Source: Amphibalanus amphitrite
Taxonomy: Eukaryota > Arthropoda > Thecostraca > Balanomorpha > Balanidae
Assembly (NCBI RefSeq): GCF_019059575.1
Contig: NW_024881586.1
Coordinates: 186,001-250,000, forward strand
Direction of reading: 5' to 3'
Length of the DNA stretch: 64,000 nt
Part shown: positions 3,994-62,077 of the stretch, one piece after another
Position numbering within the stretch: the first letter of the stretch is position 1
Layout: each line of letters begins with the position of its first letter
Made by a program: the position numbers and the translations under genes
The notes under the pieces: generated by a model
Databases searched by the model: none
What the model saw: the letters and a program-made list of their open reading frames with translations, nothing else
Told to the model about the DNA's origin: nothing

Positions 3994-5050
3994 TCAACCC
4001 TCGCCGGCCGATGGGAGGGGGGGGGGGGTGTCGCCCCCTCATATGATATTTTTTCGCGATAGCTCCGAACACGCTGGCGATAGAGAGCTGAAACTTGGCA
4101 TGCCTTCCCTTTGATTCAAGCCGGATCTTTTGACACCAACCGCATTTTCGGATCAGGTCAAGTCACTGACCTATGGCGTCATAAGTGAACCTCTGCACGG
4201 TCTTCACATGTCGCAACTTCGTAACGCCGTCACTGCCAGAGGAGCTTTCACAGGGGAATTAAACTTGCAGGACCTAATATCCATTACGAGTCTCACAACT
4301 TGAAATTCTCGCATTTTTCTTACAGGTCATTATAAGGTCAGGCCATTTTCGTGACCTCACCATTAGGTAGGTCACCTATAAGTAAAGGGAGGAAAATGAA
4401 AACTGCTATTCTGGCACCGGGAACGATCTCCAACTATCTCAAACACAAATCGTGATTTGATGCACTCCTTGCAAGTTTTGATGCGTCACTTTTGCAATGT
4501 TGATCTTGCGTGACGTCATTTATGACGTCATTAAGGTGACATTAGTTTTTCGTCAATAACTCTCGATCAAATTGAGCTAGCGAGTTGAGAAAGCCACCAA
4601 TGGACTCAGGAAGACCTGCCGAATCGAGTGATATGCAACATGACCCCCTTCGACCGATTTCGTGATCTGGGGGCGCTGACCTGACCTTGACCTGAGGTCA
4701 ACACCCTGAGTTGACCTCACCGAACCAAAAAGTATATAATTCGACGCGTCTGCGCGAGGTGAACACGATGCTGCCAAAATCGCGACTCTGCGGCCGTGTT
4801 TTGCGAAGTTATTCACGAAAAATGGAACCGTTCCTTGGGCCACTTGACCTGACCTCGGAGGTCCCCGGTTGACCTAGGACCTTAAAATCGGGTGTCAATC
4901 TGTGCGTCTCGTAACGTCGCACACGCTCGTTTTTTCTGCGACGCGCTAGCTTCACCAGGGGCGAAACGGCGAGGGGAATGGGGGTCGTACCCCCCCCCCC
5001 CCCTTTGGCCGGCGTGTATGTAGAAAACCAATAGGCCCGGCGAGGGTTAA
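3994..5050. mobile_element. GC-hairpin element (code CTCGCCGGCC)
   Basis: The left end is TCAA-CCCTCGCCGGCC, then a G-run, a short core and a C-run (about 4013-4036). The right end has GGGGGTCGTACCCCC, then TTGGCCGGCG, a spacer, GGCCCGGCGAGGG and TTAA (5047-5050). The terminal word therefore occurs twice at the right end. The interior has many AGGTCA half-sites and a paired TGACGTCA near 4510-4535. No transposase is encoded. Confidence 0.75.
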
Positions 5051-5637
5051 ACAGATCCTTCGGTCCTGTAACATGTCCCGAGGGCAAGGCATCGCCTCAT
5101 GCCCCGGAGCAGCCCTCTGACCTGCCGGGCCCGATAAATCGGGATAGCCCCAGCGTGCGCACTAGTACGGTGCTGCACTTGGGGTAGTGGCCGAGAGGGA
5201 AGGGGAGGGGCCCTCTCCGACGTCACTGGGCCATTGGGCATGACAAACACGATGGTGCCAAAATGTGGCTCTGTGACCATTTTCGGCGAAGGTTTCACCG
5301 AAGGCTTAGTTTAGAGTATTTGATCTAACCACCTCATTGGTAACTGGATGATCTGAGGCCAAATTGGATTCCGGTCGCTGCAGCTATTGTAACAGCGCAA
5401 ACGCTCGTTTTCCCGTGATCAATTAGGAGATTAGGAGATATTAGGAGATAAGCTCAATTAGGAACGAAATGGTGAGAGAGATTCCTCCCCTCGGCCGGGG
5501 AATGTGCAGGGCTGTAGAAAATTAATCGATAGGTCGGGCGAGAGAGTGATTGGCAAAGTCGTAAAATCAGCCTGACCTTAGGTTAGGTATAGGTTGATCT
5601 TGTGGTGCAGTAGTCTTAGATCTGATGCTTACCTTAA
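5051..5637. other. Intergenic, no gene seen
   Basis: Contains a short iteration of ATTAGGAGAT-like units near 5425-5460. Nothing else is recognisable. Confidence 0.3.
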
Positions 5638-5849
5638 AATAGCCGTTTTCACGACGGCTATCTGGTACACGTTTGGTGCACATCTGGTGGAGATCAGGTG
5701 CAGATTTGGTCAAATCAGGTTCAGTGCGTCTCTTAGTAGCTGTCAGCTAGGTTACACTAATTGCTTATATGCCTGCTTTGTCGTATTATCAGAGAGCATC
5801 ATCGATTAAAATACTGAAATAGATTCATAATGGCCGTTTTCACGACGGA

Positions 5850-7196: not shown

Positions 7197-7200
7197 GAGC
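7197..7200. repeat. Target-site duplication GAGC, left copy
   Basis: Matches GAGC at 18081-18084 directly beyond the other LTR. Confidence 0.75.
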
Positions 7201-10200: not shown

Positions 10201-11607
10201 TCTTGACCGAAGACAAAGACATTTCAACGTTGTCACGCATCCTGTCATCAATTTCAGCGTTCGTGACACTGAGCTACTTATGTAAATTTTCGGATCTCGC
10301 TCTTGGCCTAATCGTGAACTCCCACTGACAATAACGGTTTGCTGGCGACTCTGACATGACCTCGAAATTCAGATCCTAACATGCTACTAGGGTGTCTGGA
10401 CCAATAAGTTCAAAGTAATTTAAGTTTTCCAATTCCAATTGAGAGTGCATTTTATGGTAACCGAAAATGTTTGGCAGTCGTCACGGGCACGGCACGCTGG
10501 GCAGAGGGGGGGGGGCAAGGATTGGGATTGAGCAGACTTTTCAACAACACTCACATTCTGGAGTTCTCTGCGCTTCCGCTTCTCAGTGTGGTCTCAAGCG
10601 TCGGCGGTTGTCCTCCGGCTCTGGTCACTCGAACTGAAGAGGCTTCTCGCGGGTGACCCGGACTGACGGCGGCTCCCAGATGGCGTCTCCGGCTCCAGCT
10701 GTGGACTGTGACTCTCGGCTGCTCGACTGTGATTCTGCCTCTGGTTGGGTGGCGCACCCTTTTATAGTTGGGGGGGGGGAGGGGTGACTGCCACGCCCTT
10801 GCGACGTCATCTTCCTCTGCCTTCTTCTGGTGGGTGGGGCCGTAAGATGGCGCCCTCTGTCCTGTTTAGTCACCTTGCTCCTCTGTGCCTGCAATTTTTG
10901 GCCGTCGAATCGTCTTCGTGTTGAGTGCTTTATCATTTTAGTAATCGCTGGCATAAAACAATCCCCGAAAGGTTTGTGATTTTCGAGTTTTAATTTTGAT
11001 TCTTCAATTTCATTTTATTCAAACTTTTGTTTCCTTCCGTTTCGTCTGCCGGCAACGCCCCTTGTGACGTCACTCTTGCTCCGCCCACTGGCCCGGGTGT
11101 GGCCGTAAGTCAGCGCCTTCTTCCTCTGCGGAGATCTCTGGAACTACCTCATGAGGCCATTGTGAGGTCGGTCACCCGGTTGTTTTGCCAGGGTCACTCA
11201 CCCTGGGCTGATGTACCCGACAAAGGAGGCTGTGTGCTCCAGCCGGCATCCATCCTTGACACTGCTCCATGATCTGTTGACATATCTTACTGATCCAGCG
11301 CTCCCAGCCGTTATCTGTCCTCGGCGTGGGTCCATGAGCTGTTGACAATGTTACTGATCCAGCTGTTACTTGTTGGGGTTCGAATCGTTCATCCTGCGGT
11401 AGCTGTCTCCAAAAGCGCGCGTCTTAATGGGAGTTTAACGGCTGCCCATTCTGTGCGGACAGTGATAGATTAGGGGAACTGGGGGGGGGGGAATTGGGTG
11501 TGGGAAAGCGAGCTAGGCGTGTGGCCGGACTGCGAGGGAGAGGGACTGCCGGACCGAGCCGTGCCGAAAAGATACTACGTTAAATGTTCAAGATGTAGCG
11601 TGCTACA
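7201..11607 (-). repeat. Downstream (3') LTR of the LARD element
   Basis: 4407 bp, near-identical to the other LTR. Homopolymer lengths here versus the other copy are T 13/11, G 10/11, G 10/8 and G 11/17. Near-identity indicates recent insertion. A GATC/AGAT-rich simple stretch lies at about 7395-7540. No convincing polypurine tract borders it at 11608; the minus strand reads GGACTGAAGA just before the LTR. Confidence 0.9.
10759..10766 (-). promoter_or_regulatory. TATA box copy in the downstream LTR
   Basis: Same TATAAAAG context as the other LTR. From this LTR it could drive transcription leftward out of the element into 7200 and below. Confidence 0.65.
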
Positions 11608-13668: not shown

Positions 13669-13670
13669 TT

Positions 13671-18080: not shown

Positions 18081-18084
18081 GAGC

Positions 18085-23271: not shown

Positions 23272-24158
23272 TTAACCCTATTAGTGGCAGGGGGGGGGGG
23301 TTGTTTTTATCCACCCCTCAGGTTTTTCGGGAATATCTCCGAAACCGCTGAAGCTACGATGCTGAAATTTTCTGACTTTTCCTAAAACTAAATTGGGCAC
23401 ATTCCCTGAAAATTTCAAGTTCATAACTTTACCAGGGGCGGCTCCAGAGCACTGGGAATTGGGGGGTCCTATTCGTGAAGCGAGTCATTTGGGCGAAGAT
23501 CACGATGCTGCACCAGTTTTACGAACAGTGAATGAAAGGTATCATGTGATAACATATACAAAGTTATTGTGCATCCTCTTTTGACACGTTTTTGCTATAA
23601 TAGGCGGATCCAGGCGTCCAAAAAGGGGGGTTATTTTTTACCTCCCAACATAGGTGCCCTGACACCGCCTATGCATGACCAATACAATTTTAGTCGTTCT
23701 CTCATAAGAAAATTGTAACATAACAAGACCATTGCCACCCTTTTTAGAAACAGTACCAACAAAAACCTTATTTACTATACTTTTTGTGTACCCCCAATCT
23801 CAATGATCTGTATCCGCCTATGATTTTTGAAAATGCATATTTTTAGGATCCATGTGAATTCCTGGTTCATTCTCTATCGATCGGCAAAAGTTGCGTTAAG
23901 ATTGGTTCAGAAACCTGGCCGTGATAAACAGTCTAAAATGTATCTGCAATTTGCCCGTTTTTACCCCCCTCTACCCCCCTATTGACATTTTTTAATTTTA
24001 TTTTTTTAGAAATGTAGATCTCGTTGAGCCAAATCGAATGCCGTTTGAATTTTGAAAATCGGCCGGTTAGATCTCGAGATATCAAGGGGGGGTCGTAAAC
24101 AGCCCCCCCCCCTGCCACTAATATGGGGTAGCCAGGAGCCTGCCACTAATAGGGTTAA
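23272..24158. mobile_element. GC-hairpin element (code CCCTATTAGTGGCAG)
   Basis: TTAA-CCCTATTAGTGGCAG followed by a G-run forms the left end. The right end is C-run-CTGCCACTAATA, a spacer, then CTGCCACTAATAGGG-TTAA, so the terminal word is duplicated at the right. TTAA duplicates lie at 23272-23275 and 24155-24158. It sits inside a GGGCCGTATTCACG MITE and contains a smaller MITE at 23600-23821. No ORF. Confidence 0.8.
23600..23821. mobile_element. Small MITE with ATAGGCGGATCCAG ends
   Basis: Left ATAGGCGGATCCAG and right CTGTATCCGCCTAT are imperfect inverted repeats. The GGCGGATCCAGG terminus is shared with elements at 52747, 53921 and 56125. Innermost member of a three-level nest. Confidence 0.55.
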
Positions 24159-25933: not shown

Positions 25934-26938
25934 TCTATAAAATATGTAGTAGCCGTTTTCACGACAGCCATCTGGTACACATTTGGTGCACCTCTGGTAC
26001 AGATTAGGTACAGATTTGGTCAATTTAGGTTCAGTGTGTCTCTTAGAAGCTATCAGCTAGGGTTGCACTAATTGCTTATATGCCTGCTTTGTCATATTAT
26101 CAGAGAGCATCATCGATTAACCCGCGCGGGGCTGGGGGGGGGGTAAATTTTACCCCCCCTCGCGAATTTTTGCGATATCTCAAAAACGGCAACGCGCAGC
26201 GCCGCCAAACTTTAAGTACCTTTTCTTACATCAATTTGACACGTTCCCTGAAAATTTTAGCGAAATCCGTCGGAAATTTTTTGAGAAATTGACGTTTTAG
26301 TGACGTCATGTTCGCCATTTTCGCCTCAAAAACGGCAAAAGTTCAAACGCCGCTAACATCTTCATTTTTAAAGGAATCAAGACGTAACAAAAAAGGTTAT
26401 ACGTTATTTTACTTTGTCTATCAAATGGCTATCTCGGTTTTTTGAAAAGTTTGGATTTTGGCCTAATTTTTTTTTTTCAAAAAACTGACTTTTTTGGGAA
26501 AATCATTATAAAATCCAAAATTTTGAGTCTATCGAAAAAACCGGAATATATCTCAGAGAATTGGTCTATGTGCACCTACATACCAAATTTTAGAAGAATC
26601 GGGTCAAAAATGTGGGAGTTATTCAAAATTTTATGACGTCACGACACACAATTTTTTTTTGAAAAATGACTTTTTTTGGAAGTTCTATACCTCGTACGGA
26701 AACAAAAATAGCACCATTCGATTCGCCGTGAAAAACTGCATCAGATAGACACCTTTTTAGGCCTTAACAACCAACTTCAAAATTTGACCTCACTTGACCT
26801 GACCTTGACCTGACCTCGACCTGAAATTCATCCAGAGGTGGTCCATATCACTTATTGAGTGTGCCTATTGAATTCTATGAGTAAAATGACCCATAAAACA
26901 TGTGTCGCACATGCCCTTTTCTATATTTTGTTTTTTGG

Positions 26939-26978
26939 TGACCTGACCTGACCTGACCTGACCTTGACCTTGACCTCT
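26939..26978 (-). promoter_or_regulatory. AGGTCA array, inverted copy
   Basis: TGACCT units repeated on the plus strand, equivalent to the array at 25078-25118 read on the minus strand. Confidence 0.45.
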
Positions 26979-27083
26979 GAATGATATTGTATGCAACGAA
27001 TATTGTCTTGGTAGCCTAAGAACACGTTTTGGGCGATCAGTCTCAGTCCATGACTCCATTCTTCGGCAACTACGGTGCAAGGC

Positions 27084-29375
27084 AACTTTTCGACTGGTTA
27101 AAATCATATCTTTGTGACAGGACACACCGAGTACGGATCAACAGCACATTCTCGGCCACTAAAACAATAAATGCGGGCTGCCCGCAGGGATCCGTACTCG
27201 GGCCTTTGCTGGCACTTATGTATCTCGACGGACTTTCAAGACGAATAAAGAATGACATTCTCTTTTTCGCTGACGACACATCTATCCCGGCAGTTGCTGG
27301 GGTATTTCGCCACCCACCGTTTGCTGGGGGGGGGGGGCGTTAAACGCCCCCAGCCGATAACTCGAGAACCAATAGGCGCAGCGAAACGCACGAGGCGGCA
27401 AACGAAAGAGCGCGACGAGACGCTTCAGATGAGTACTTTAAAGTTGAATTTTGAGGTCACAGGTCGGGTCAAGGTCAGGTCAAACACCCAAAATCGGGCT
27501 TTCAGTAGCATGGACTTCAGGACTTCGCAATGGGCGCCTCTCGCCATAAACTCTGTCAGAACGGTGCACAATCCATCTTATAAGGCCTACAAGAGTGTCA
27601 GCTCCATGTAGGGGTCAGTCAAGCATAGGTCAGGGTCAAGGTCAGGTCAACCGGGTAGGCACATATCCCCGAAAATCAAAACTGATATTCGCAGCCTGTG
27701 ACACATGTTTTATAGGTAATTTGGGGCGTAGAACACGATGGTGACATTCATTTTATCATATGTGTACGTGTTTGGCTCAAAAAGTTCAATTTAATAAATT
27801 CATGTATCATGGTCGTGAAGTAGTCACGAAAAATTGCCAAGGTTCAGTTCAAGATTATGGAAAATGCGGAACGATAATCAATAATCGAAGATAGCCATTT
27901 GATTGATCATGGTATTGGCAGTCTAATGGCGTTTACGGAATGTCTGTATGTTTATTCTGTGATTTTATATGATTTTTTGAACATATGCCGTTTTTTCAGA
28001 AATCATGACGTCACTAAAACCTCGATATCTCAAAAATTTTCTGACCGATTTTTTTGAAACTTTGTCACAATAAGCTTCAATCAATTCCCTACAGGTACCC
28101 AAAATTTGGCGCGCCTGCGGCGCGCCGTTTTTATGCTATGGCCCGGCGAAAAAAGTGGGGGCGTTTAACGCCCCCCCCAGCAACTCGCGGGCTATCTACG
28201 CCTCGCACACGACAGCAGACATTGACGCCGTACAGCTATCACTACAACAAGACCTCAACGAAATCCACAAATATGGTCGAGAATGGGCAATTACATTCAA
28301 CGCTACGAAGACCATCCAACAAACATTTTCACACAGACATCAATACACACCACCAAAGCTCACTTTCGAGGGCGCAAACGTACCCATTCATGAAACTCAT
28401 ACTCACCTAGGCTTGACACTTTCTAAGGACCTACGCTTCCACCAACACGTCAATGCAATATGCAACAAGGTACACAAATCACTCAGTCCACTCTACTCCA
28501 TTGCACGTTACATACCAAGGCCCATTCTCGACCAAATTTACAAGACGTATATAAGACCTTACTTTGACTACTGTGACACAATATATGACGGACACATAAC
28601 AATACAAGACGCTGCCCGACTTGACACGCTACAAAACAGAGCAGGGAGACTTGTGGCGGGGGCTATGTTCAGGACGTCAACCGAAAAACTTCTACAAGAC
28701 TTGGGCTGGGACAAACTGACTGTAAGACGACAAATACACAAACTCACTTTATATCATACATTCACTAATCCAAGACACCAAACGCCAAATTATATCACAA
28801 TGATCATGCCAGAAACACGTGCAGAAAACACCGGCAGAACACTACGCAACTCCAACACACACACCATGCCTCCCAACCGAACCACATCCTTCCAGAAGTC
28901 CTTTTTCCCCTCAACAGGCAAATCCTGGAACCAGCTTCCCGAATCCATCCGATCCCTTCCTCCTCGTTCCTTTCAACGAGAGATCTCGAGGCGACTGGGG
29001 GTGCCTGGGCCTTCTCCCTTTCACAAAATTGGCACTAAAATGGGCAATATTTTCCATTCTAGGCTACGAATGCAAATGTCACAACTAAATTCACATTTAT
29101 TTCAAATACAAAGGCACGATACACCTGAATGTGCTTGTGGCTTTGAAACAGAAAATATTCATCATTTCATTCTCGCGTGTCCCAACTATAATTTGCAGAG
29201 GGAGGAACTTTACCGGGACATGTTGCAAATTTTTGGCGAAAATTTTGGTCAAATGTCAACTACACGGTTATTACGTCTTCTTTTGCATGGCGACGATCTT
29301 GGCGGCGGGGACTGTCGTGCGGTGGCTCAGCATTTCCAAAATTTCTTGCTTCGTTCGCACAGATTTACCTATTAA
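27084..29375 (+). pseudogene. Truncated LINE reverse transcriptase and C-terminal domain
   Basis: The first part (27084-27285) encodes the RT motifs GCPQGSVLGPLL and FFADDTS, including the catalytic Asp pair. The frame is then broken by an inserted element. It resumes at about 28196 (IYASHTTADIDAVQ) and stays open to 29375. The rest contains the thumb region (THLGLTLSKDL, IYKTYIRPYFDYC), a WNQLPESIRS motif and a C-terminal Cys/His zinc-binding motif (CACG...HH...C). Endonuclease and the early RT are missing. Without the inserted DNA the two halves meet in frame, so the insertion came after this copy arrived. It is a CR1/Jockey-like non-LTR element; the exact clade is uncertain. Confidence 0.85.
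27286..28191. mobile_element. GC-hairpin element (code GTTGCTGG) inserted in a LINE ORF, CTAT duplication
   Basis: Left CCCGGCAGTTGCTGG, a spacer, GTTTGCTGG, a G-run, GCGTTAAACGC and a C-run. Right GGGGGCGTTTAACGCCCC then CCAGCAACTCGCGGG. CTAT flanks both sides (27282-27285 and 28192-28195), and removing one copy plus the element restores the RT reading frame. The target is therefore 4 bp but not strictly TTAA. The interior has AGGTCA motifs near 27455-27480 and 27630-27650. Confidence 0.85.
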
Positions 29376-30081
29376 TTTACCTACCTCATTCAGTTTTGTG
29401 GGCGGCGTCCCCGGTGGGCTGAGTGACGTCAGCGCGGGTTGGGTCGGTGGCCTGTCGTGGCGGCGGCAGTGGTAGTTTTGTTTCATTACGCTACGTTACC
29501 TTCATTACGTTGTATGTTTATGTTATATTCGACGTTGATCTGAAGGCTATGTTCATGTTGTTTTATGTTTATGATGTCTATCTGATTATGTTACAAGAGG
29601 TGGTGCCTAGAGTCAAGCACAATGTGCTTTTGCACCACTCTTATATTATTTTGCTTTATCTCTGTTATTCATGTTCATTTTCCGATCGTTTTACTTATAG
29701 GTTGTCGATGCGCAATAAACATTCTGGAATGGAATGGAAAAAAGGCCGATACTGTAGAAACTTGCAATTTGTACCCTTGACCTGACCTTGACCTTGACCT
29801 CAAACTTTAAATTTAGTACATGTTTAAGTAGTTCGTGATGAGAGCTTTCGATTGGCGTTTGAATTTTCCAAATCGGACCATTAGTTCGGGAGATAACAGG
29901 GGGGGGGGGAAATTTACCCCCCCCCCCCCCAGCCCCGCGCGTTCGGCTGGAGACCCCAGCCCCGCGCGGGTTAAAACACTGAAATAAATTCATAAAATGA
30001 AGATATTTGCTGTAAAAGAGATTAGCTGCAGATTTGGTCAAATTAGGTGCATTCGACGGATAGCCCGTCGTGAAAACGGCT

Positions 30082-31340: not shown

Positions 31341-32246
31341 TTGAGCGCACATGCCATTTTCCCATCCTAGAACGCACATGGGGGGGGGGGGGGTTGCCAC
31401 CCCCCCCGCGCCATTTCGTTCCTGTTGGAGATAGAGCTTAGCGGTAAAGACCAAAAAGATTCTTTGGGAAGAGACGAATCCAATGATACCCAGTTTTACC
31501 TTCTCAGGTCAGTCATTGACCTTCCAGGTCAGGTCAAACTAAAAAATGCTGCTGTTTTGGGTCACCGTTGGATATCAAGTGTGCTGCTTATCAAATACCG
31601 ATGACGATGCTGTTTTCTGGTGTCAAGCCAGCTAGAACCTCTTTGTCACACTACCCGACTAGAATTTTGCTGCTGAGGTCATTTCAGGTCAAGTTAGGTC
31701 AAGGTCAATTATATGTGTTTGTATGTCTGTGTGTGTCTGTGTGTATACTGATGTGTGCACCGATTGTTTTTGGGTCCATATTACATGAAATCATGATCTG
31801 AGAAGCTGTTACCAAAAATGCAGTCAAAAAACTTCAAAAAAGTACCTAAATTCAGCTTGCCTAAAACGCAATTATCTTAGATGACCTAGGTTGACCTTGA
31901 CCCTGACCTTGACCCCTGTACATCGTCGAACAACATGTTCCATGATAGGTGGGAGGTAAGACTGGCAAAAAAGGCCGAAATCAGGGTGTCAAAAGCTCAT
32001 AAGGCCCATGGCAAACGCAATGTTGAGAATTGGCCATTTGGGTCATGACATGACCTGACAAACAAGGTCATATCTCCGAAACCAAAAATCACAGAAACTT
32101 GAAATTTTCAGTGGACATCAAGAAAGGATAGAGGAGCAGCTATGCGAAAAATCAGCCTTCTAGCTCTAAAAATGTTGAGTGCAGAGCAGAAAGACTACCT
32201 GGGGGGGGGGGGGGTGGCAACCACCCCCCATGTGCGGGCGAGGGTT
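31341..32246. mobile_element. GC-hairpin element (code GCACATG) ending 20 bp from a lectin stop codon
   Basis: The left end shows TTGA-GCGCACATG, a spacer, AACGCACATG, a G-run, TTGCCA and a C-run. The right end has a G-run, TGGCAA, a C-run, CATGTGCGGGCGAGGG and TTAA (32243-32246). The stop codon of the minus-strand lectin-like gene is at 32266-32268, so this element would form its 3' flank or 3' UTR. The interior has AGGTCA motifs and a TG-rich stretch near 31705-31755. Confidence 0.75.
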
Positions 32247-32265
32247 AAGCGCCGTTCCACTTCTT

Positions 32266-33894: not shown

Positions 33895-34110
33895 TTCCCG
33901 ACTTTTGGGGCATTGACCTGACCTGGAAGGTCAACCAATGACCTAGGACCTTACAGTTGGGCATCATCGGCTTCCTCTCGTCACGGGCAACACGCTCATT
34001 TTTTCCGCGAAGCTCTCTAGCTCGATCAAGGGCCGAACGGCAGGAAGGGGGTCCAACTCACCCCTCCTACATATTAGACGCCGGAAAACGCCCCACACAG
34101 GTGAGGGTTG
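33895..34110. mobile_element. Right-end fragment of a GC-hairpin element
   Basis: Aligns with the right 200 bp of the element at 3994-5050 (GACCTAGGACCTTA, CACGCTCATTTTTTC, GGGCCGAACGGC). It ends AGGTGAGGG-TTGA. The G/C hairpin is eroded to GGGGGTCCAACTCACCCC. No left end found. Confidence 0.5.
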
Positions 34111-41539: not shown

Positions 41540-41640
41540 TTAACCCGCGCACCGACGGGGGTCTGCGCCAACTTCGTACCGACGGGGGGGGGGGGGGGGG
41601 GCAGAGGTGAAACAAAGGCCGAATCTTCCACCGACAGCGT
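41540..41640. mobile_element. Solo left end of a GC-hairpin element
   Basis: TTAA-CCCGCGCACCGACGGGG, a spacer, TACCGACGG and then a G-run of about 19. The expected core and C-run are absent; the sequence jumps from the G-run to CAGAGGTGAAA. The terminal word matches the right end at 51795-51815 (CCGTCGGTGCGCGGG-TTAA). Confidence 0.6.
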
Positions 41641-41824
41641 TTCTTCCACCACTAGATTTCCACCAAGTTTCCACCTTAATAGGTAAATAGTAAGTGAGCT
41701 GTTGCCTGTTTCTCACTACCGCAAATGTAAAAAAAAACTTTTTGTCCCTTTGATAATATGGCTATACTTTAACGATATACCACTTATTATGTTTTATCAA
41801 CATTATCACCAATCTGACAACCAT

Positions 41825-43117: not shown

Positions 43118-46100
43118 TCACCTGAAGACAGTTGTCCTGCGGCATGTTGTACTCTTATGCCGCCTGACAACCGTCCCCTCTATAGCCGTCCTTGCGTCTA
43201 CAGACCCTCTTACAAAGGAGTTGTTATATCGGCACTGCACGGCCTCAACAAGGTCCCCACTGTGGTGCACATCAGGCCCATTCCAGCGAATCATCAGTTC
43301 ACGCTCGGCATTGCGGTGGTCGAGTTGCCTGTGCACGCCGTATATGTCCCCGACCACACTCGCCATGCTCTCCACTACGGACTCTGGGGGACTCAGTAGC
43401 CACAGCCTGATGACTAAGTGGGCGTACCGCTCGAACGTGCGGCTGTCGGTGGCCTCCTTCAGCAGGGCCTGCAGCAACTGCTGGTTGCTCGCCCCCGCTG
43501 GCTGGCCGGTGAGGAACCGATACACGGTCATAATGTCCTCCTCGTCCACGGCCGCACTGACTGGCACCATGCGCTGGCTGACGAGGTTTTCGACGCTGCG
43601 TCGCACGCTCTTCAGGCAGTCGACATTCCTCACCTGTTGGAGAGACTTCAGATCGGCGATGATCTTGGCATCGCTTACGGCCCACTGCAGTTTGCCGTTC
43701 ATCGCTCCTTTCGCGTTCCCTCTTACATCAAGCCCGCGACTGCGGGCACGCGCTCTGTCGCAGAGGGCCGCTACGAACTTCAGAATCGATGCAAGCTGAG
43801 AAAAAAAGACATCCTGGGTTTAGGTAATCATACACGTCGGCAGACTATGACACCTACGTACGTAAAAAACGTATAGGTGGACGTGGGCCTTCAGTTATAG
43901 GGTAAATACGCTGACTTAACTTCGAACATTAAGGATGTCAGGTAGGTAGGTAGACTATATCAAAAAGTCAATTCAGCTAAATGAAACCATTATAGTCAAA
44001 ATTGATGTGAAAATGATCAATAACGCGTCGGACCAGACCAGTTAAATGAAAACAGACACAGATGAAAAAATCAACCAAAATAATTTATTCGTGAAGAGTT
44101 GGCAATTCCTTTCAATCGTTTTCCCGAAAACTGGACACCGCTCATGAACGTTTCTCTCCTAAGTCGTGACTAGCCAACAATCAAGGTCATGTTTAGTTCG
44201 AGCGCAACAAACAAAACTTATTATTGTTATAACTTATTATTGAAAGGGATTTGATGATAACACACCCTGGAGGGGGGGGCAGAATCTGCCCCATTTCTAT
44301 CTCGGCTCCCACAAGAGCTAGAAGGTCGAAATTTGGATAGCTTTTATGTGCAAGTTCTATCACTCCAAGTCAATATCAGTAAGGTCACACGAGGTCAAAT
44401 TTGGCACATCACGACGCGGCTTTGCTGAAATTGTATTGATCTAACGAGTCTTCTCGAAAAAGGAAGCATTTAGGTACATATATATTGAGGAGGTAACGAA
44501 AGTGGACTCTCACTTCACCGATATGAAAAACAATCAGATATATACGAATTATAAACGTTGATGGAGTCATATTATCACATTGAAAGTTTCAAATCGATAG
44601 CTTGAAAATGTGGCCACGGCACAACCGGAAAGGTGCAAAGTTGACCTTTTGCATGTCCGAAATTCGACCTGATCTGGTGACCTAGGCTTAGGTGACACGG
44701 GGTCGTTAATTGTACCCAAAGTGTGATCCAATTCTGGTAAGGTCCTGAGAATTTGGCGCCGCAAGGCCGTTTTTTCGCATCATCAAAAAAAAAAAAAACA
44801 TTGTGGGATAGACACACCGCGCACTGAAAGCAGAGCGCGGGTTAAAAAAATCCATCGGGTTAAAAAAAGCATAACGGCGCCAATCGATGTAGAAACTAAC
44901 GTAAAACGACGCATGGCGACGCAAAAAAAAAAAACACATTTATCGTACCTGATCATCGGCGACAGTTGCTAGTGACGACAAGACCGGCCACCTCTTCTTC
45001 AGCTCGCCTTCGTCGTCCAACTCCACGGCGTCCTGCATCTCCGTGAAATTATCCAGCATCGTGGAGAACATCCTCTGTCGCTCCCAGGGGAGAACCTGCA
45101 GGTTCTGCAGCGACTTGCTGCCCTCCGCGAGCACGCCGTAAATGTCGCACAAGGCTGCCAGTTTGGTCACGAACGTCGGGTCTGTGGAAAAAGAAGCATT
45201 TCACTTTGACGCGGGTTCTTATCTAGCAAATCCGCCCACGTTGAATATAAGGGATAAATTTGTCATTACTGAAGTACCATACCACATACGATACCAGCCA
45301 ACCACTGGCGGTCAGCAGCAGCAGGCAGCGACAAATGCATCTTGGTACAGAAGTGTATACCTGACTAGAAATTGCAGGGCGAATACTAATTGCATTATGT
45401 TTCGACAGTTGAAAACAATCATTGCTTCTCATCAACGCCAACGGTGCATAAAATAGGTTATGGAACATAAGCACAAAAACAGTACATTAAAAAGGCTGCA
45501 TAATTGCATCAACAGCCAGAGTTATCTTCATATTTAAAACTAGATTGATGAATTAATTACACGATGGCTGTTAGCCAAAGTACAAAACGATGAAGAGAAT
45601 TGCGCGAGCCTTACTACTCCGACAACAGGTATACACATTTCCAATTTGTATACCCATGAAAAGCTTACCTCGAAGCAGCCGGAGATCTCGCTGTTCGCTG
45701 CCATCGGTGTCCCCTGATTTGATTTGCTGCTCCAGGGCGTCTTCCATCACTTGCAGGTTGCGGAGGAAGACTTCCAGCGTCTTTGCTGCGTAAGGGGCGA
45801 ATCTTGTCCCCGACCACAGCTTCGGTCGTACCACCTTCTCGCCCCGATCCTCCCCAGCATTGAGAAGCCTTTCGAGCCCTTTGCCCACTGTGTAGCGCTT
45901 GGTGATGCCTGTCACCTGAGCGATGACCTTCTCTACCCACTCACAGCCATTTGAACGTCGCGCGTCATCTTCGGCCAGGTTGAGCAGGTGAGCCCCGTCC
46001 CACAGCACAACTACTGACGGGGCCGTATTGAACCGTGGGTCCGTGGCCCTGAGCCGACTGAGCAGTTTCTCTGGCACTCGGTTATGGTGATACTGCCCAT

Positions 46101-49100
46101 CCATGCAGATTGCAGCCAGTTTGTCTGGGTGAGTCACTCCGACCTTAACCAGAGACTGACAGAGCTCATCAGCCAGTCCATCTCCACTGTGGTCCTTTAC
46201 TACGGGCGCAGCGACTACAAACGATTGGATCATGTGACCCGCAGGCGCCCCACTAACCACAGCTATCACGGCGGTTATGTCGATGGTTCGCTTTGCGACG
46301 GTCACCTTGTCTGCGCACATGGAGACGCATGGTTGCTGCTCAATGAACCTCTGCAGCATACTCGTCATGACAGTCGAGAACTGCAGCCGCATTGTAGGGA
46401 CAAACATGCTGGAGTGGTTGGTGTTACCCACCCTCGTGCCATTCTCCGCCTGGAGAACGACCAGGTCCTCAAACGAAGCCCTTGGCAGGGACCGTTTCAG
46501 GACGAAGTACCCCGTGCGAAGGACGTGACTGGCGGCGCTGGCGTTCCGCGCAAAACGTCCTTTCGCCAACTCGTCCGTTTGTTTTTTGGCGAGTACGGTT
46601 TTTCCGTGGTGTAGGCCACAAAAGTGACTCCTGATGGCCGCCCTCAGGTGCCTGAACGATGATGGGAGAGACTGACCATCTGCAAAACTGGTTCCCAGAT
46701 TAAAGTCGTAGGTGAACACACCTTTTGCGCCCCTTCGACGCACAGCGCCAGACGGCACACATGCAGAACAGGCGATGAGGCCTTCATCTGGGGACTGAGT
46801 GAGAAGGTTGTCTGTAGCAACCTGGAGGGCGGCGATGCTTCTCCCCGAGCGTATCAACAGTTTAGCTGCCTCCGATGTTTCATCCGTTCTTTTCTGACCT
46901 ATCTTAGCAGTAGTCACGCTGCCCTTTCTGAGAATGTCGATGATCTCGTTCAACTTGGATTCATTACGTTTTACTTGCAGGGCAACGCTCTTCATGGCAG
47001 AAAACAGATCTGCTAACTCCCTACTGGGTCCAGCAGGGGCAGCGCCATCACCTCCACGGGCTTCGGAAGTGTTGTTTGCAGGAGGGTTGTCACTGTCTTC
47101 TGCTTCCAGCTGGACAGATTCGTGGACTGGGGACATAGGTGGACCACAGTCCATGCTTTCAGCTGCCGCGGCTGTCGTCTCTCCACTCTCCAGAGCTCCA
47201 TCAGAAGCCTTAAAAAACAGACGCATTAATTGTCACTGGAATGTCAAGCAGCCAGTCCAAAACAGCAAGAAATCGCTAGCGGTACAGCCTGAGCCTTGAG
47301 AGCTTTGTGTAACATATAGTTTTACGCGAGAAGGTAGATGCGCGTTGTGAATTAGGAATAAATGATTTGGTGTGGGAAAGAGATAATTCCATATTTTTGG
47401 GAATGGAACATAAGATCATTGGATCCTAAAAAAAGATTATAACAAGCAAAAGTACCTAACCAAAACTAATCTAACCTGACCTAACCCCACCTAACCATAC
47501 CTGACCGAGCGTTTGGTCATGATCATGTGAAACTTACAAAGTTTTGCGTTAAAAGTATTGTCAGTATGGATGTGAGGTGTCACCTTTTAACACGTGCCGG
47601 GCCGAGGTGGGGGGGGGGGGGTGAAAGGGGAGGGGGGTTGAGCACTAGCTGCGGTTTTTTGGCAGAGCTATTCATGCATCTTTTCCGCATAGGTTGTGAG
47701 AATTTCAGACCTGGGTCATTCAATGTCAGGTCAACAGGCGACTTTGAGGGTGTGCGTGTCAAACAGCGACTTTAAAGCAGTGACGTCACGCTACTCGATC
47801 TGACGGGAGGGTACGACCGTCGCTTGGAGTACGCATGGGAGGTCTTTTTTCAGTTGCTAACATATCCTTGCGTGGCATTCGGCGTACCTGGGACACGCCC
47901 CCTCCACCCTGGAAAAACGCCATTCCGCAAGTGGACCTCTCACTATCGACTGTTAAGAAGGACAACTTGTTGCCTGCTGAGGCGCGAGCCAGAGCCTTAG
48001 AGCACATTGCCGTTTATGATGGTTTTATCACGGTTTATACAGACGGCTCGAAGACAACCGAGGGAGCGGGCTGCTCTTTTGTCGCTGGTCGTGACACCCG
48101 CTCGTTTTCTCTGCCACCGTCCGCCCCGGTATTTTCTTCAGAGTTAGTCGCTATAGAGAAGGCTTTGTGTTTCATCAAGGTTCCTGGCAATCCCTTTTAC
48201 TTGATTTTATCTGATTCTCTAAGCAGCTTATTGGCCTTACGTAGTTTTAACTCAGCTGACCCCATCGTACGGGACATTTTAACTCGGCTTACGTCGGTGG
48301 AGCAATCTGGAAAATCAGTCCGTTTTTGCTGGATTATCCGTTCGGTCAACTTCCAAGTGATTTACTCAACCTGACCCAATTCCTCTCAAAGTCTACTTGC
48401 CTAGTCAGTTGACTGTTACGACGGTCTTGCGTTGTTCTATCTTACCTTGTCGTTTTTATCAAGTCTTTTACTGTCAAGCCTTGGTATATAGAAGGTTTCT
48501 TTTGAAACACTTGTTTTATTAGTGTGACGTTATGGGCGCAAAATGACCTTCGCAGTCGGCGCGCCCTAAAAGCCCCAATAAACAAACAAAAAAGCGACTC
48601 ACTCAAAACGGTAATTGCATTTTGAGCGACGTCTAGAGCAACGACTCATACGCTTGAGCGATTATCTAAAACGGCGATCCGTAAAAGAGCGACTTCAGAG
48701 GAACAGATCGACTATTCTAAGCTAATGGGGATTGGAAAAGCAAAAATTGGCGATTCCTCGCGAAGTATACCTACTTAAGCTTGCTAGCTTGCTTCGTTCT
48801 CGAGATGGCACAGGGGCCGGGGGGGGGGAGCAGGTATTCGCCCCCGTCTACTAAGTTGACGCCAAACCCCGTCGGTGCGCGGGGCTCCGGAGAGTCCGGT
48901 TTTTGTCGTGAAAAATCAACAGTTTCAACGACAAATCACTTATGCACATCGAAACGAAAAACAAAGACTTTAAAATTAACTTCTAAGTATGCTACGAAAT
49001 GCCTACTTCGATATGGACTCCTTACTGTTATTTTCTATTAAATAATACTGCGAAACGAGTGCAATGTGCATTTTACATAAAATGTAGACTGCCAGAAATC

Positions 49101-50840: not shown

Positions 50841-50849
50841 TTTATTTCA

Positions 50850-51815
50850 CCTCTGGGGGGGGGGGCGGATGACCGCCCCCCCCTGAGATCTCGAGAACGA
50901 AGCAAGATAGCGACAAGCGGTAAACGGCATCGGATACGCACGGCCAAGATCTACAATTTTTACTAAGGTCATTTTCAGGTCAGGTCAAAGTTGACGTCAC
51001 AGGGGTCGAAAAAGTCAAAATGGCGGCGCTAGATATGGAGAGAGTTTTTCTCGAATAACTTTCGAATTAGTCAAGATAGGAACAAACTAAGGGCATCATC
51101 GTGATCCTCTCGTCAATCCGCATCGAATGATATACATGTTGACCTCGAAAGGTCAAGGTCAAAGGTTGACCTCAGGTCACGTGACCTCGAGGTCATCATG
51201 TATATCATTCGATGCGTCTTGACGAGCTGAACACAATGAGACCATCCACGCGTCTGTATCTTGTTCCTGTACGGAGTTATTGGCCAAAAACCTTTGGTGA
51301 CCTTTGATGACGTCACATGACCTCACAGCTGCCCAACAGCAAAACAGACCTCAAGGTAGTGAAGGTTGATCGCATATGAAGTCATGTATGGTATATGGGG
51401 CCATTCCGACCCGTTTTAGTGGTAAAAACAGGGAGTTGATTTTTCCCCCCATTGACTTATAATGGGGAGGTCGCGAAATTGACCTGACCTTAGGTCACCG
51501 ATATCAAAATTCCGAGATATACAAATTGTAGCTACTAATGACCTAATAATATCCTGCGAGTTTCAAAGGCCTCCGACATCTACTGTAGCTCTGGCACGGT
51601 GACAAAGTTGCAAAAAAGTGACTTGAGGTTGGGTCATTCAAAGTGACCTGGTGACCTGACCTTAAAAGGTAAGAGGTTCAAACTTGCACACCATGTGTAA
51701 AATTGATGAGGTTATAGTCATACCAAATTTCGCGGCGCTACGCGCCGCGGTTTTCCCGCTATTCGCGAAAAACCTCAGGGGGGGATATCCGCCCCCCCGT
51801 CGGTGCGCGGGTTAA
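50850..51815. mobile_element. GC-hairpin element (code CCGTCGGTGCGCGGG), left terminus altered
   Basis: The left hairpin is a G-run, CGGATGACCG and a C-run (about 50854-50883). The right hairpin is a G-run, GATATCC and a C-run, followed by CCGTCGGTGCGCGGG-TTAA (51812-51815). The usual terminal word is not seen left of the first hairpin. The interior is rich in AGGTCA motifs and has GATGACGTCACATGACC near 51307-51323. Confidence 0.65.
51120..51216. repeat. Palindromic cluster of AGGTCA half-sites
   Basis: CATCGAATGATATACATG at 51120 pairs with CATGTATATCATTCGATG ending near 51216. Between the arms, AGGTCA motifs occur in direct (AAGGTCAAGGTCAAAGG) and inverted (AGGTCACGTGACCT) arrangement, the latter around a CACGTG E-box. 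Confidence 0.6.
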
Positions 51816-54735: not shown

Positions 54736-55683
54736 TTAACCCTCGCACGACCAGGCCATTTCTCATAACACGAACGACCAGGGGGGGGGGGGTTGTTACG
54801 ACCCCCCCTGGCGTTTCGAAACGGAAGGTCGTAGAGCTTAGCGGAAAAAACCAACGGATTGCTCTCAACGAGATCTCGCGATTGGTGGTATATTTTTTGG
54901 TCCTAGGTCAACATTTGACCTACTTATGACCGGTCAAAGGTCAAATTTTCCGAAAAAATCACACTTTTTCAACTTTCCGCGGCGATTGCGGCAAAACGGT
55001 GGGAGATATCGACTTGAAACCTTCACTATCGTGTTCCTTGATCAATTCTGTATCGTTTGGTATGTATTTCGTTTCCCTAGCTCTAAAAATGGCGCGTTGG
55101 GAGCGCCGGAAGTCGGCAAGGTCACAGTCGGCGGCAGAAATTCGAAAAATCAAAATTTAAATTTTTGAAATCTGATTGTATTTTTGGATTTGGGAGGTCC
55201 ATTTGCTCCCTATAGAAGCTAATATTGCTGCATATTCCCATTGAGGTGACAAGAATTAGCAAAATAGTGGTTCGGGCGCTTTTCAAAAATAGTACCGGAC
55301 GCTGTTCCTCTTGTGACGTCATAGCTCCGTGACCTGACCTGACCCGGTCAATTTTCTTGCACCACACGATAGCCAATGCTTGCCCCAACATGCATGGGAA
55401 GTTTCATCATGATCCATCAAACAATGTGGGTAGCACCGGCAGAAAACCTAGGGATTCGGCGCACACGTTTGGTAACTGTCGGCCGGAGGCTGTACCTCTT
55501 ATGACGTCATAACTCCGTGACCTGACATGACCCGATCAATTTTTTCGGCAAAAGATGCGCAAAGGTTGCCCCAGAGGGTATTGAAAATTTCAGCCCGCTA
55601 CGACAAGCCGTTTAGCGTGCACTTCGAAAAAACCTCAGGGGGGGGGGGGTTGATACAACCCCCCCCAGGCGTTCTAGGGTTAA
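54736..55683. mobile_element. GC-hairpin element (code ACGACCAGG), TTAA duplication
   Basis: Left TTAA-CCCTCGCACGACCAGG, a spacer, CACGAACGACCAGG, a G-run, TTGTTACGA and a C-run. Right G-run, TTGATACAA, C-run, CAGGCGTTCTAGGG-TTAA. TTAA at 54736-54739 and 55680-55683. The interior has AGGTCA motifs and TGACGTCA near 55315 and 55503. It splits a minisatellite-bearing element. Confidence 0.8.
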
Positions 55684-56034: not shown

Positions 56035-56125
56035 TTTTCTGGCGTTTTGGGGGGGGCCAAACAGGCCACTTTAGGCCTTTGGGGGGGGCCATGGCCCCCG
56101 TGGCCCCCCCCTGGATCCGCCAGTG
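56035..56125. mobile_element. Right end of a GGCGGATCC-type element
   Basis: GGCCACTTTAGGCCT and a G-run, then CCTGGATCCGCCAGTG, as at 53575-53647. The left end is not identified. Confidence 0.5.
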
Positions 56126-59535: not shown

Positions 59536-59587
<52 letters not shown>

Positions 59588-60204
59588 TTTCCTTCTCCCT
59601 CCTTTTTCCTCCCCATGGCTATGTTCATGACACGACTGCACGCACGTGCGCATTGTCGTAAGTATTTGAGCTCAGGTTCGCGGGACAGCTAGCAGCATCG
59701 GTTGCAGTGTCAGTGTCGGTTAGTCCGTGGCTAAGGTGTCATCTACTAGCCCCAAGCAAGGTTGGCACTCCGTTCTCACTCATCCCACTCGCCAGTGTAC
59801 GAGTATTGTTCCGCTCTCACGGGTCAGCCGACCGGGTGGCCGCGGTGACCAGCGCTCCTGACCCCGTTCTGATCCAGCAAACAGCCGTGGAACGCCCCAG
59901 GTCGCCCAGCCACCCCGATTACGCCGTGTGATGGTATGACCAGCTGCAGCTGACGGCTTTTTACGGCCCGGGCATGCACTGGCACGGTCGCTGGCGGCCG
60001 CGCAATATGTGGAGCACCGGATATCTCAGTACGGGACGGTAGACCGAACACGCTGTGACGGCAGCTCCGGAGCGACGGCATGCCGGCGGGATACTCTAGA
60101 GAAGTAAGGCATTGCCTTGTGTGAATATCAATGACTCTAACAAGTTACCGTCATTTTTTTTGTAGTAGTGTTGATTCATGACAAAATAGAAAAATAACGG
60201 AAAC
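56126..60204. other. Long intergenic region, no supported gene
   Basis: AT-rich to about 57000, then CpG-rich patches. A purine-rich stretch at about 57250-57350 has GGAGTGGAGGGGAGAGG repeated twice. Degenerate CAGACCTAGACC repeats lie at about 59140-59240. Open frames in the CpG patches (for example 58464-58673 and 59707-59931) show no recognisable domain. Confidence 0.35.
59529..59584. repeat. CT dinucleotide microsatellite
   Basis: Long CT run with a few CCCT interruptions. Confidence 0.9.
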
Positions 60205-62077
60205 TTAAAGGAAGACTGCCACCTTCAAAAAGTTTTCTCAGATCGGCCTATGATTTATTCCCTGGACAAAACAAAATTTTAGAATTCACCTGACAAAGTA
60301 TCATCACGTGAATCGCGAAAAAAATTGTCGATTATCATACAATTATCATTCGGTTAATGTCTAGCGACAATGTTTACACATCACTAGACTTCAAGGTCAT
60401 AAGATTATTACATTTTATTTGAAAAGTAAGGTATTTTATGATTTACTAATATATGATTTCATAAGAAATTGGCCATGTTTAATTTATTTTGCATTTAAGT
60501 TCGTAAAACATTTAAAAATCATGGCTCATTTGGAATGGGTCTGGCCCATGTTAAACCCCATTTCCCACACTTTTTTTGGAAAAAATGAACTACTGAATAT
60601 ACAAGTTTAACCCGCGCCCCACTGGGGTCTGTGTATAACACGCCCTACTGGGGGGGGGGGGGGGCTATTCATAGCCCCCCTCCTAACTCCGAAACTACTG
60701 GGCCGATCGTCAAAATTCAAACGGCGTCTGATAGCCCCGGAAAAACTGTCGAGCGAAACCGAATTTCATTGACCTCGAGGTCACCGATGACGTCACAGGT
60801 CAGGTCAAAGTAAAAATTATTAGCACTTTGGCTTGTTCACATTTTGGGCTCTGGCCGCCGTCTTACAAGTCAGATCAGGTTCATTTTTGGTTTCCACACT
60901 CGTGAACAGATGCTCTAGTTACCTTGAGGGTACCAAACTTGTACTTTGATTTTCAGGTCAGGGTCAGGTCATCACAGGTCACGAAAATATTATATCATGC
61001 GTCGGTCACGTGACACATGTATTATGGTCCATTTAGGCCATAGATTTCGAATTTGATATCGTCTGTGTCATTCGAGGTCATTTTGAGTCGAATTTAGCTT
61101 AGGTCAGGTCACTTTCAGGTCAAAAAAGGTCAAATTTTGAAGTTAAAATTGTTCAACAAAAAAGGTGTCTATTGGATGCAGTTTGAGCTCAGGAACACGA
61201 TGGTGCCATTTATATTGGTGTACGATGTCAAATACGTACTGAAAAAGTGATTTGAAAAATTAATAATTGTGAATTTTTTGCAATAATGCGTATAACTTGG
61301 CCATTTTTGAAGGTATTTAGCTAAAACTTGCTAGAGTTACTCATAATCATGCGTTCTGTCACATATATTCCGGTTTTTTCGAAAAGTCAAAAACTTTTTG
61401 AAAAAAATATAAAAATATAAATTTTGAATATTATTATATAAAATTTTCGAAATTTTCAAAATTTTGAAAATCCGAGATACCAGTTTGATAGCGCGGTCAA
61501 TTCTGAGTCCTTTCATGCAAAGAAATTGGATCTAGCTTAAAAACTGAGCTCTTGGGAGCGATTGCCGTGGTTCAATGTTTTGCGTCGAAATCGGACGAAC
61601 ATGACGTCACTCTGACGTCATTTCCGGCCGACCTATGGTAGCTACGAAGTTCAAATTTTGACACAAGGTGTCAAATTGATGCAGCCGAAGGTACTGAAAG
61701 TTTGGCGTCGATACGTCAAGCGGTTTGGAAGTTATTGCAGAAAAACGGGAGGGGGGGGCTATAAATAGCCCCCCCCAGTGGGGCGCGGGTTAATTAACTT
61801 TTATTTTGACACTCCAAAATTCTTCTCTGATCTCGAAACAATCAAAGTTTTGACATATATTTACCAAAAGATAAGAAAATTCATGTTTCAAAGTTATCGA
61901 TAAACAGTAGAGATGTCGGTTTTCTTGGACTAAAAAAATGGCATCAAACTGAACTTTGGTCTCCGATTTCTCGCAAGCGGGTTCGAATTTCGGAAAACCG
62001 ACTTCAGTCTGGGACATAGGTGGCTCAGCTCTAGTGAAAACCGTTTTGTGGAAAAAAAGGTGGCAGTCTACCTTTAA
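60205..62077. mobile_element. MITE, TTAA duplication, TIR AGGAAGACTGCCACCTT, split by a GC-hairpin element
   Basis: TTAA-AGGAAGACTGCCACCTT at the left and AAGGTGGCAGTCTACCT-TTAA at the right. Without the insertion at 60607-61793 it is about 690 bp. The AGG start and CCACCTT motif echo the MITE family at 41825 and 52976. Confidence 0.75.
60607..61793. mobile_element. GC-hairpin element (code CGCCCCACTGG), TTAA duplication
   Basis: Left TTAA-CCCGCGCCCCACTGG, a spacer, CGCCCTACTGG, a G-run, CTATTCATAG and a C-run. Right G-run, CTATAAATAG, C-run, CCAGTGGGGCGCGGG-TTAA. It is 1187 bp with no ORF. AGGTCA motifs lie at about 60770-60805, 60955-60980 and 61070-61130; TGACGTCA at about 60787 and 61602-61620. 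Confidence 0.88.

What the first reader, a model, noticed from the sequence alone, without database searches (positions are those of the whole stretch)
3994..61793. GC-hairpin element family whose terminal sequences differ between elements but stay complementary within each element
At least a dozen full or partial elements share one architecture: a 4-bp target (mostly TTAA), a short element-specific word, a G-run, a near-palindromic core, a C-run, an ORF-less interior, and the same in reverse at the other end. The words differ: CGCCCCACTGG at 60607, GGGGCTGG at 24748 and 26117, ACGACCAGG at 54736, GCACATG at 31341, GTTGCTGG at 27286, ATTAGTGGCAG at 23272. In each case the opposite end carries the complement. 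Cores also differ and match between the two ends (TTGCCA/TGGCAA, CTATTCATAG/CTATAAATAG, GTTAAAC/GTTTAAC). Seen: the paired ends. Known: piggyBac and Sola3 elements use TTAA. Inferred: a non-autonomous superfamily in which termini diversify but are kept paired, for example by gene conversion between ends or hairpin-templated repair.
Basis: partly seen in the sequence, partly recalled or inferred. Interest (0 to 1): 0.85.

Follow-up and report, generated by a model that had tools for sequence, protein, structure and literature searches.

The report
Many-worded piggyBac elements with GC-hairpin ends
The strange paired hairpins are the ends of short cousins of piggyBac, a cut-and-paste jumping gene, and this genome holds many thousands of copies in at least twenty versions that spell the recognition words differently but keep nearly the same spacing.

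Summary
The elements belong to a piggyBac-type lineage, mostly as short copies without a gene. Each resolved element has a 'single' end (TTAA, 13-15 bp holding the word, then a G-run/core/C-run palindrome) and a 'double' end with a second word copy before the palindrome: the asymmetric plan of T. ni piggyBac. Across 20 families bp 1-6 is conserved (85% identity) and bp 7-13 varies (43%). Words and cores match between the two ends of an element beyond all of 10,000 permutations, and the double end is longer by 26-28 bp in 18 of 20. In the 807-Mb genome the single-end pattern matches 16,273 times on one strand, the double-end pattern at least 20,000, the in-between spacing 391. Differing words are most likely family-specific transposase-binding sites. 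Gene conversion between ends is disfavoured: some elements have unequal ends. Transposase-bearing copies are known for 2 of 20 families, a short/long pair for one. A known superfamily with an unusual palindrome and extreme word diversification.

The parts
330..430 (+). Decayed single end (core TTGATGCAA) of an element whose body lies to its left; terminus degenerate, other end not identified in the window
3994..5050 (+). Element H, flanks TCAA/TTAA, single end left, double end right; relative L049 is 1029 bp long without one TSD
23272..24158 (+). Element F1 (word TATTAGTGGCA), 883 bp, TTAA TSD; single end left, double end right; 39 other scored copies at 99-100% identity
24748..25933 (-). Element A (word GCGCGGGGCTGG), TSD TTAT; double end left, single end right
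26117..29974 (+). Element B, same family as A, TTAA TSD; single end left, double end right; interrupted at about 27083-29741 by a stretch with a reverse-transcriptase-like frame; a paralogous copy of its flank at about 5640-5830 shows one TTAA at the corresponding place
27282..28195 (-). Element C (word AGTTGCTGG), TSD CTAT, inserted in a frame with a FADD motif (reverse-transcriptase-like by eye; Pfam found nothing in the ORF 28074-29375); without the element and one CTAT the frame stays open across the site
31341..32248 (-). Element D (word GCACATGG); double end left with eroded terminus (TTGA), single end right (TTAA)
33905..34067 (.). Fragment 73% identical to the double-end side of element H
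41540..41601 (-). Element K, outer part of the double end; separated from the rest by a 9.25-kb insertion
50856..51815 (-). Element K, remainder, to the single end at 51815; rejoined K is 95.4% identical to L050 over its length
44246..44845 (.). Decayed element J: core CAGAATCTG as in family L085 on the left; atypical T-run end with TTAACCCGCGC on the right
48819..48890 (+). Partial K-like double end inside the 9.25-kb insertion (read by eye)
54736..55683 (-). Element E, 944 bp plus one TSD, TTAA; internally deleted relative of the transposase-bearing element at C527:290214-294184 (first 389 bp 96.9%, last about 320 bp 94.4% identical)
60607..61793 (-). Element E1 (word GCGCCCCACTGG), TTAA; double end left, single end right

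Best explanation
These are piggyBac-superfamily cut-and-paste transposons, mostly short copies moved in trans. Bp 1-6 (mostly CCC[G/T]CG) should meet the catalytic domain, the variable word (about bp 7-14) the DNA-binding domain (DDBD), and the G-run/core/C-run palindrome the dimer of C-terminal cysteine-rich domains, as in T. ni piggyBac. One end has one word+palindrome unit; the other has a spacer and a second word about 27 bp further in, the place where a second transposase dimer is modelled on piggyBac's right end. Words and cores match within an element because both ends must be read by the same transposase; they differ between families because transposase and ends diverged together. Shown: anatomy, target sites, spacing, copy numbers, transposase-bearing copies for two families (open frames in C527 and C33). 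Inferred: which protein domain reads which segment, co-divergence as the cause, and that families without a known transposase work the same way.
For: Genome-wide single-end pattern 16,273 forward matches (control 0), double-end pattern 20,000 (control 2; possibly capped), in-between spacing 391 (control 3). 20-family table: G-run starts at bp 13-15 (single) and 39-44 (double; 35 in the eroded D); difference 26-28 bp in 18 of 20. Own versus other-family similarity: inner word 0.83 vs 0.46, terminal word 0.87 vs 0.52, core 0.82 vs 0.48, each 0 of 10,000 permutations. bp 1-6 identity 0.85, bp 7-13 0.43. Three transposase-bearing E elements of 3971-3977 bp and one G element of 4723 bp; open frames of 646 aa (C527) and 645 aa (C33); PF13843 E=2.2e-69 and 9.4e-60; for E, PDB 6x67 E=2e-78 including the cysteine-rich tail, with D268, D346 and D447 each aligned to Asp, and piggyBat 9c0f 3.2e-30. 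E and G group with T. ni piggyBac at 100/100, apart from 14 other transposases of this genome. Element E is an internal deletion of the long element. TTAA beside 2,315 of 2,756 exact C-family ends and on both sides of 8 of 8 F1 loci, one being the window copy. Passages: RE bp 34-63 nearly identical to LE bp 7-35, cysteine-rich dimer on the palindrome at bp 17-33, catalytic domain at bp 2-6, DDBD at bp 7-16, a 5-bp insertion in RE halves activity (PMC7351741).
Against: Transposase-bearing copies were found for 2 of 20 families, and a short/long pair for E only. In the tree 4 of 18 own-genome groups fall in the T. ni-type clade, fewer than the word families; but only 43 of 116 scored transposase matches were read, and the ends of L036 and L059 (same clade) were not reached. 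The palindrome arms (G-run/C-run of varying length) are unlike T. ni piggyBac's, and their centre (mean bp 27.4, range 24.5-30) lies slightly inward of bp 25. The second word copy matches the terminal copy at only 5-6 of 10 bases in L049, L073, L079 and L082. The own partner is the sole best match in only 10-12 of 20 families. In one search, 4 of 20 loci showed no matching double end in the stretch held (L047, L075, L081, L083). winD (20) and L082 (30) depart from 26-28 bp. Target sites TTAT and CTAT occur, and 441 of 2,756 exact C-family ends lack an adjoining TTAA.
Confidence: 0.85

Rival explanations
1. Cross-mobilisation: a few piggyBac transposases move all families, reading only TTAA, CCC and the palindrome; words diversify with little constraint and match within an element only because the families are young.
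For: More word families (at least 20) than transposase groups seen in the relevant clade (4 of 18 own-genome groups, from 43 of 116 matches read). The authors of coral CMITEs suggest such cross-mobilisation for MITEs with divergent TIRs and conserved interiors (PMC2872659). Family E tolerates unequal words.
Against: Words and cores match between ends across 20 families, and the second, internal word copy follows the family. Variation sits in the stretch that piggyBac's DDBD contacts. The two families with transposases have proteins only 36.7% identical to each other.
Confidence: 0.15
2. One reading: termini diversify and are kept paired by gene conversion between ends or by hairpin-templated repair.
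For: Words and cores match between ends; each end could fold at its palindrome.
Against: Unequal words in family E, in the window and in three transposase-bearing copies; unequal cores in F1 and H's relative L049; one element with a change at one end only (C1:332444-333640); the single/double asymmetry persists in every resolved family.
Confidence: 0.03
3. Unrelated transposon families that converged on GC-hairpin ends.
For: bp 7-13 and spacers are only 43% and 34% identical between families; the interior beside the double end is only weakly alike (73 of 190 pairs above every shuffle).
Against: Shared inner motif (about GGTTTTTCGCGAATA) next to the single end: 159 of 190 pairs above every shuffle. 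Same spacing in 18 of 20. The two families with transposases fall in one clade.
Confidence: 0.02
4. Another TTAA-targeting superfamily (Kolobok or Sola3).
For: TTAA target duplication alone does not discriminate (recalled).
Against: The long copies of E and G encode PF13843 transposases, E matching PDB 6x67; ends follow the piggyBac LE/RE plan.
Confidence: 0.01

Closest known systems
piggyBac of Trichoplusia ni (PDB 6x67/6x68; PMC7351741, passages read)
   Same: TTAA target, CCC terminus (recalled for T. ni), asymmetric ends with a duplicated motif offset by 27-28 bp at one end, near-palindrome after the terminal repeat at both ends, DDD transposase with C-terminal cysteine-rich domain
   Different: Palindrome arms are G- and C-runs of varying length; at least 20 word/core families in one genome; most copies read are 0.9-1.2 kb without a transposase gene; conserved motif inside the single-end palindrome
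Coral CMITEs (PMC2872659, parts 1-3 of 4 read)
   Same: TTAA MITEs with divergent terminal repeats but related interiors in several families; piggyBac-like partner known for one family
   Different: About 100 bp long; no G/C-run palindromes or single/double ends described in the parts read
piggyBat of Myotis lucifugus (PMC11707139, passages read)
   Same: piggyBac superfamily; imperfect palindromes bound by cysteine-rich domains; repeated subterminal motifs
   Different: Palindromes found on the left end only and at other spacing; weaker sequence match to E (PDB 9c0f, E=3.2e-30)
Tetrahymena M-type IESs with A5G5 tracts bound by Lia3 (PMC4780704, passages read)
   Same: G-tracts at a fixed distance from excision boundaries
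   Different: Tracts lie outside the excised DNA, 45-50 bp away, and are read by a quadruplex-binding protein; an analogy only

Membership tests
piggyBac superfamily | TTAA target-site duplication | tested here: met
   8 of 8 F1 loci; 2,315 of 2,756 exact C-family ends; window exceptions TTAT, CTAT, TCAA, TTGA
piggyBac superfamily | Termini begin with CC[C/T] and inverted repeats of about 12-19 bp | tested here: met
   CC in 20 of 20 single ends, third base C in 19 of 20. The genomic loci were picked with a TTAACCC pattern, so this is biased for them; the window elements were found by their palindromes
piggyBac superfamily | DDD transposase of Pfam PF13843 between the same ends | tested here: met
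   Families E and G; not found for the other 18 families
piggyBac superfamily | C-terminal cysteine-rich domain | tested here: met
   E aligns to PDB 6x67 through its Cys/His tail; G has a similar Cys/His tail by eye
T. ni piggyBac-type ends | One end with a motif duplication offset by 27-28 bp relative to the other | tested here: met
   Double end longer by 26-28 bp in 18 of 20 families; the duplicate is weak (5-6 of 10 bases) in four
T. ni piggyBac-type ends | Near-palindrome centred near bp 25, bound by a dimer of cysteine-rich domains | tested here: inconclusive
   Position roughly met (mean 27.4); the sequence differs and binding is not testable here
piggyBac superfamily | Hairpin-mediated, footprint-free excision | not testable with these tools
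   Needs biochemistry
MITE | Short, non-coding, many copies, mobilised in trans | tested here: inconclusive
   Short and many: 21 of 22 short elements with a length are 883-1220 bp (L048 569); 39 other F1 copies at 99-100%. Coding content was not scanned family by family; mobilisation in trans is inferred
Kolobok / Sola3 | Kolobok- or Sola-type transposase | tested here: not met
   The long E and G copies carry PF13843; other families untested

The most novel reading that the evidence does not exclude
This genome holds a natural diversification series of one transpososome design: at least 20 paired solutions (word plus palindrome core) to the same end-recognition problem with spacing frozen near 27 bp, in which G/C-run palindromes form a new kind of binding site. 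Word and core behave as separate modules: nearly the same word occurs with different cores and the same core with different words, while the adjacent interior is kept.
Probability: 0.25. Interest if true: 0.7.

Novelty: new variant of a known kind. Interest (0 to 1): 0.5.

Why it matters
The asymmetric ends of piggyBac, a widely used gene-delivery transposon, are called puzzling by the authors of its structure, and the proposed second dimer on the longer end is a model. Here some 20 families that share little sequence in bp 7-13 keep the second site about 27 bp inward, independent evolutionary evidence for phased binding. The matched word/core sets, with two transposases, would allow the rules of piggyBac end recognition to be read by comparison, and might give transposases that do not cross-react.

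Tried and rejected
Expected the top-scoring piggyBac transposases to be the autonomous partners. Of the 30 best (L009-L038), paired ends were found for 19, all plain (such as CCCATTAGTGCC) without G-run palindromes. Hairpins seen in L010, L017, L022, L023, L026, L029 and L031 lie outside the transposon boundaries; L020's boundaries were not found; the L028 transposon sits inside a GC-hairpin element.

The first copy comparison assumed oriented loci; loci from this genome are on the contig's + strand, so it was repeated on both strands.

Pfam at E of 0.1 or less gave nothing for five of six window ORFs tested and a sub-threshold RNase H match (E 0.028) for one; the reverse-transcriptase ORF is therefore named by its FADD motif only. 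None of the 116 scored PF13843 matches lies on contig C89; most window ORFs were not scanned.

The G-run as a quadruplex tract (analogy with Lia3, PMC4780704): not testable here and not needed.

Rows dropped before the 20-family test: L045 and L048 (same families as L039 and L050), winA and winB (as L039), winH (as L049), autE_C527 (as winE), overlapping duplicates L040-L043, L046, L051, L052, and L047, L075, L081, L083 (no matching double end). Genomic families were chosen for word diversity from the first listed places on one contig, not at random. The double-end hairpin of L076 was set by hand because its G-run is broken; the double-end cores of L076 and L084 were cut badly by the script and left so. 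Tree: 43 loci read; rows over 90% identical merged, L013, L014 and L018 had no frame of 380 aa, L054, L056, L057 and L064 were replaced by E_C527 and G_C33; 18 rows plus T. ni piggyBac remained.

Literature listed no paper whose title or abstract start describes piggyBac elements with G/C-run palindromes; this covers only the open-licence library and those terms.
Full report
OBSERVATION. The window is contig C89:186001-250000 of an 807.55-Mb, 2,644-contig assembly. GGGGGN{4,20}CCCCC palindromes occur at 22 places in the window (126 overlapping matches; 0.58 expected, 0 of 100 shuffles reach it); three of these look like another repeat. Resolved elements: H 3994-5050, F1 23272-24158, A 24748-25933, B 26117-29974 (interrupted), C 27282-28195, D 31341-32248, E 54736-55683, E1 60607-61793, and K, split between 41540-41601 and 50856-51815. 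Decayed pieces lie at about 330-430, 33905-34067, 44246-44845 and 48819-48890.

ANATOMY. Each resolved window element has a single end: 4-bp target, 13-15 bp ending in the word (19 in window H), then G-run, core, C-run. The other, double end reads: target, word, spacer, word again, then G-run, core, C-run. Over 20 families the G-run begins at bp 13-15 at the single end and 39-44 at the double end (35 in D, whose terminus is eroded); the difference is 26-28 bp in 18 of 20 (D 20, L082 30). The second word copy matches the first at 7-10 of 10 bases in most rows but only 5-6 in L049, L073, L079 and L082. Across families bp 1-6 are 85% identical, bp 7-13 43% and the double-end spacer 34%.

PAIRING. 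Similarity of single- to double-end inner words is 0.83 within families and 0.46 between; terminal words 0.87 and 0.52; cores 0.82 and 0.48; no permutation of 10,000 reached any of the three. The own partner is best or tied best in 17, 17 and 15 of 20, sole best in 10, 12 and 11. Ties arise partly because words and cores are shared between families: L044 and L080 have the same core with different words, L074 and the transposase-bearing G nearly the same word with different cores, G and L078 the same single-end core with different words. Exceptions to pairing are informative: E has unequal words (CCCTAGAACGCCT and CCCTCGCACGACCAGG), in the window and in three transposase-bearing copies, and the element at C1:332444-333640 carries CCCAGCTGG at one end and CCCTGCTGG at the other.

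GENOME-WIDE. The single-end pattern TTAACCCN{6,14}G7N{5,20}C6 has 16,273 forward matches (control 0), the double-end pattern N{34,42} 20,000 (control 2; the round number may be a cap), and the spacing between, N{20,28}, 391 (control 3). Reverse-strand counts are inflated by overlapping alternatives and are not used. If both strands are alike there are about 30,000 single ends, some 4% of the genome at 1 kb each (estimate). 40 F1 matches were scored of 2,473 candidates; the 39 besides the window copy are 99-100% identical, so the family probably moved recently. TTAA abuts 2,315 of 2,756 exact C-family ends.

TARGETS. 8 of 8 F1 loci, one of them the window copy, sit between TTAA. A paralogous copy of B's flank shows one TTAA at the corresponding place. 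C lies in a frame with a FADD motif, CTAT on both sides; without it and one CTAT the frame reads on. The FADD motif suggests a reverse transcriptase (recalled); Pfam found nothing in the downstream ORF. Other non-TTAA flanks in the window are TTAT, TCAA and TTGA.

TRANSPOSASE-BEARING COPIES. 116 matches to PF13843 were scored of 232 candidates in the genome; none is on contig C89. Flanks of 43 of the 116 were read (30). Three copies of one family (C44, C527, C1173) lie between the single and double ends of window element E, 3971-3977 bp apart. Another (C33) lies between the ends of a second family (word CCCTGGTGG, core CCATTTTGG), 4723 bp; relatives at C257 and C431 each showed one matching end in the stretches read. 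Open frames run 646 aa in C527 and 645 aa in C33; C44 departs from C527 near its C-terminus and C1173 lacks the N-terminal part in frame. PF13843 matches at 2.2e-69 and 9.4e-60. The E protein matches T. ni piggyBac (6x67) at 2e-78 over the latter's residues 52-593, through the cysteine-rich tail, with D268, D346 and D447 (named in PMC7351741) each aligned to Asp. In a tree of 19 sequences, E, G, L036 and L059 join T. ni piggyBac at 100/100, apart from 14 other transposases of this genome; those of the 14 for which an end was found have plain termini. E and G are not sisters (E with L036, G with L059), so the tree does not show a single origin of hairpin ends; the ends of L036 and L059 were not reached.

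SHORT FROM LONG. Element E is the long element with the middle removed: its first 389 bp are 96.9% and its last about 320 bp 94.4% identical to C527, with about 240 bp of other sequence between. At C527 a 948-bp copy abuts the long copy, single end to single end, sharing one TTAA. Across families the 50 bp inside the single-end palindrome are more alike than shuffles (mean 0.58 vs 0.40; 159 of 190 pairs above every shuffle), less so inside the double end (0.53 vs 0.42; 73 of 190).

MECHANISM. In T. ni piggyBac the catalytic domain contacts bp 2-6, the DDBD bp 7-16, a dimer of cysteine-rich domains the palindrome at bp 17-33, and RE bp 34-63 nearly repeat LE bp 7-35; a second dimer on the RE is modelled, and a 5-bp insertion there halves activity (PMC7351741, passages read). 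The families here fit: conserved bp 1-6, variable word over the DDBD stretch, palindrome next, second unit about 27 bp inward. Word and core match within an element because one transposase must read both ends. This mapping is inference by position; no binding was measured. The main rival is cross-mobilisation by few transposases, which the excess of word families over transposase groups allows. Gene conversion between ends is disfavoured by the unequal ends.

COMPARISON AND NOVELTY. Superfamily membership is shown for E and G and inferred for the rest. Coral CMITEs are a precedent for TTAA MITEs with divergent termini and conserved interiors (PMC2872659, parts 1-3 of 4 read). Not found in the searches made (listings of the open-licence library only): G/C-run palindromes as the internal repeat, or this many word families with one spacing in one genome. 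I call it a new variant of a known kind.

LIMITS. Of the 20 family rows 5 are window elements, 14 are loci on contig C1 chosen for diversity and 1 is a transposase-bearing element; 12 are families not resolved in the window. 

Noticed in passing
41602-50855: A 9.25-kb insertion with inverted ends CAGAGGTGAAA/TTTCACCTCTG lies inside the G-run of element K, so its 8-bp duplication would be GGGGGGGG; hAT-like by ends and duplication (recalled). Its ORFs at 45571-47232 and 43118-43819 have no Pfam match at 0.1.
   Followed up: partly
7201-11607 and 13671-18080: A 4.4-kb direct duplication, 99.75% identical.
   Followed up: no
41825-42310 and 52976-53455: A second, different repeat with TTAA flanks and AGGGACCCTCCCACC inverted ends, about 480 bp, 90% identical; similar ends flank the transposase locus L015.
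   Followed up: no
21543-22571 and 32266-33459: Two paralogous ORFs, about 82-83% identical in DNA, with Ser/Thr-rich middle parts and a C-terminal region that looks lectin-like by eye.
   Followed up: no
44760-44863: An end with TTAACCCGCGC but a T-run in place of the G-run, next to the usual single-end interior; GGGTTAA occurs twice within about 25 bp.
   Followed up: no
L067, G000:C527:289270-294184: A 948-bp short copy and a transposase-bearing copy of the same family abut, single end to single end, sharing one TTAA.
   Followed up: partly
L028: A 2.7-kb plain-ended piggyBac element with a 604-aa open frame sits inside a GC-hairpin element (word CCCTGATGG at one end, CCCAGATGG at the other); ten other loci hold near-identical copies.
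   Followed up: partly
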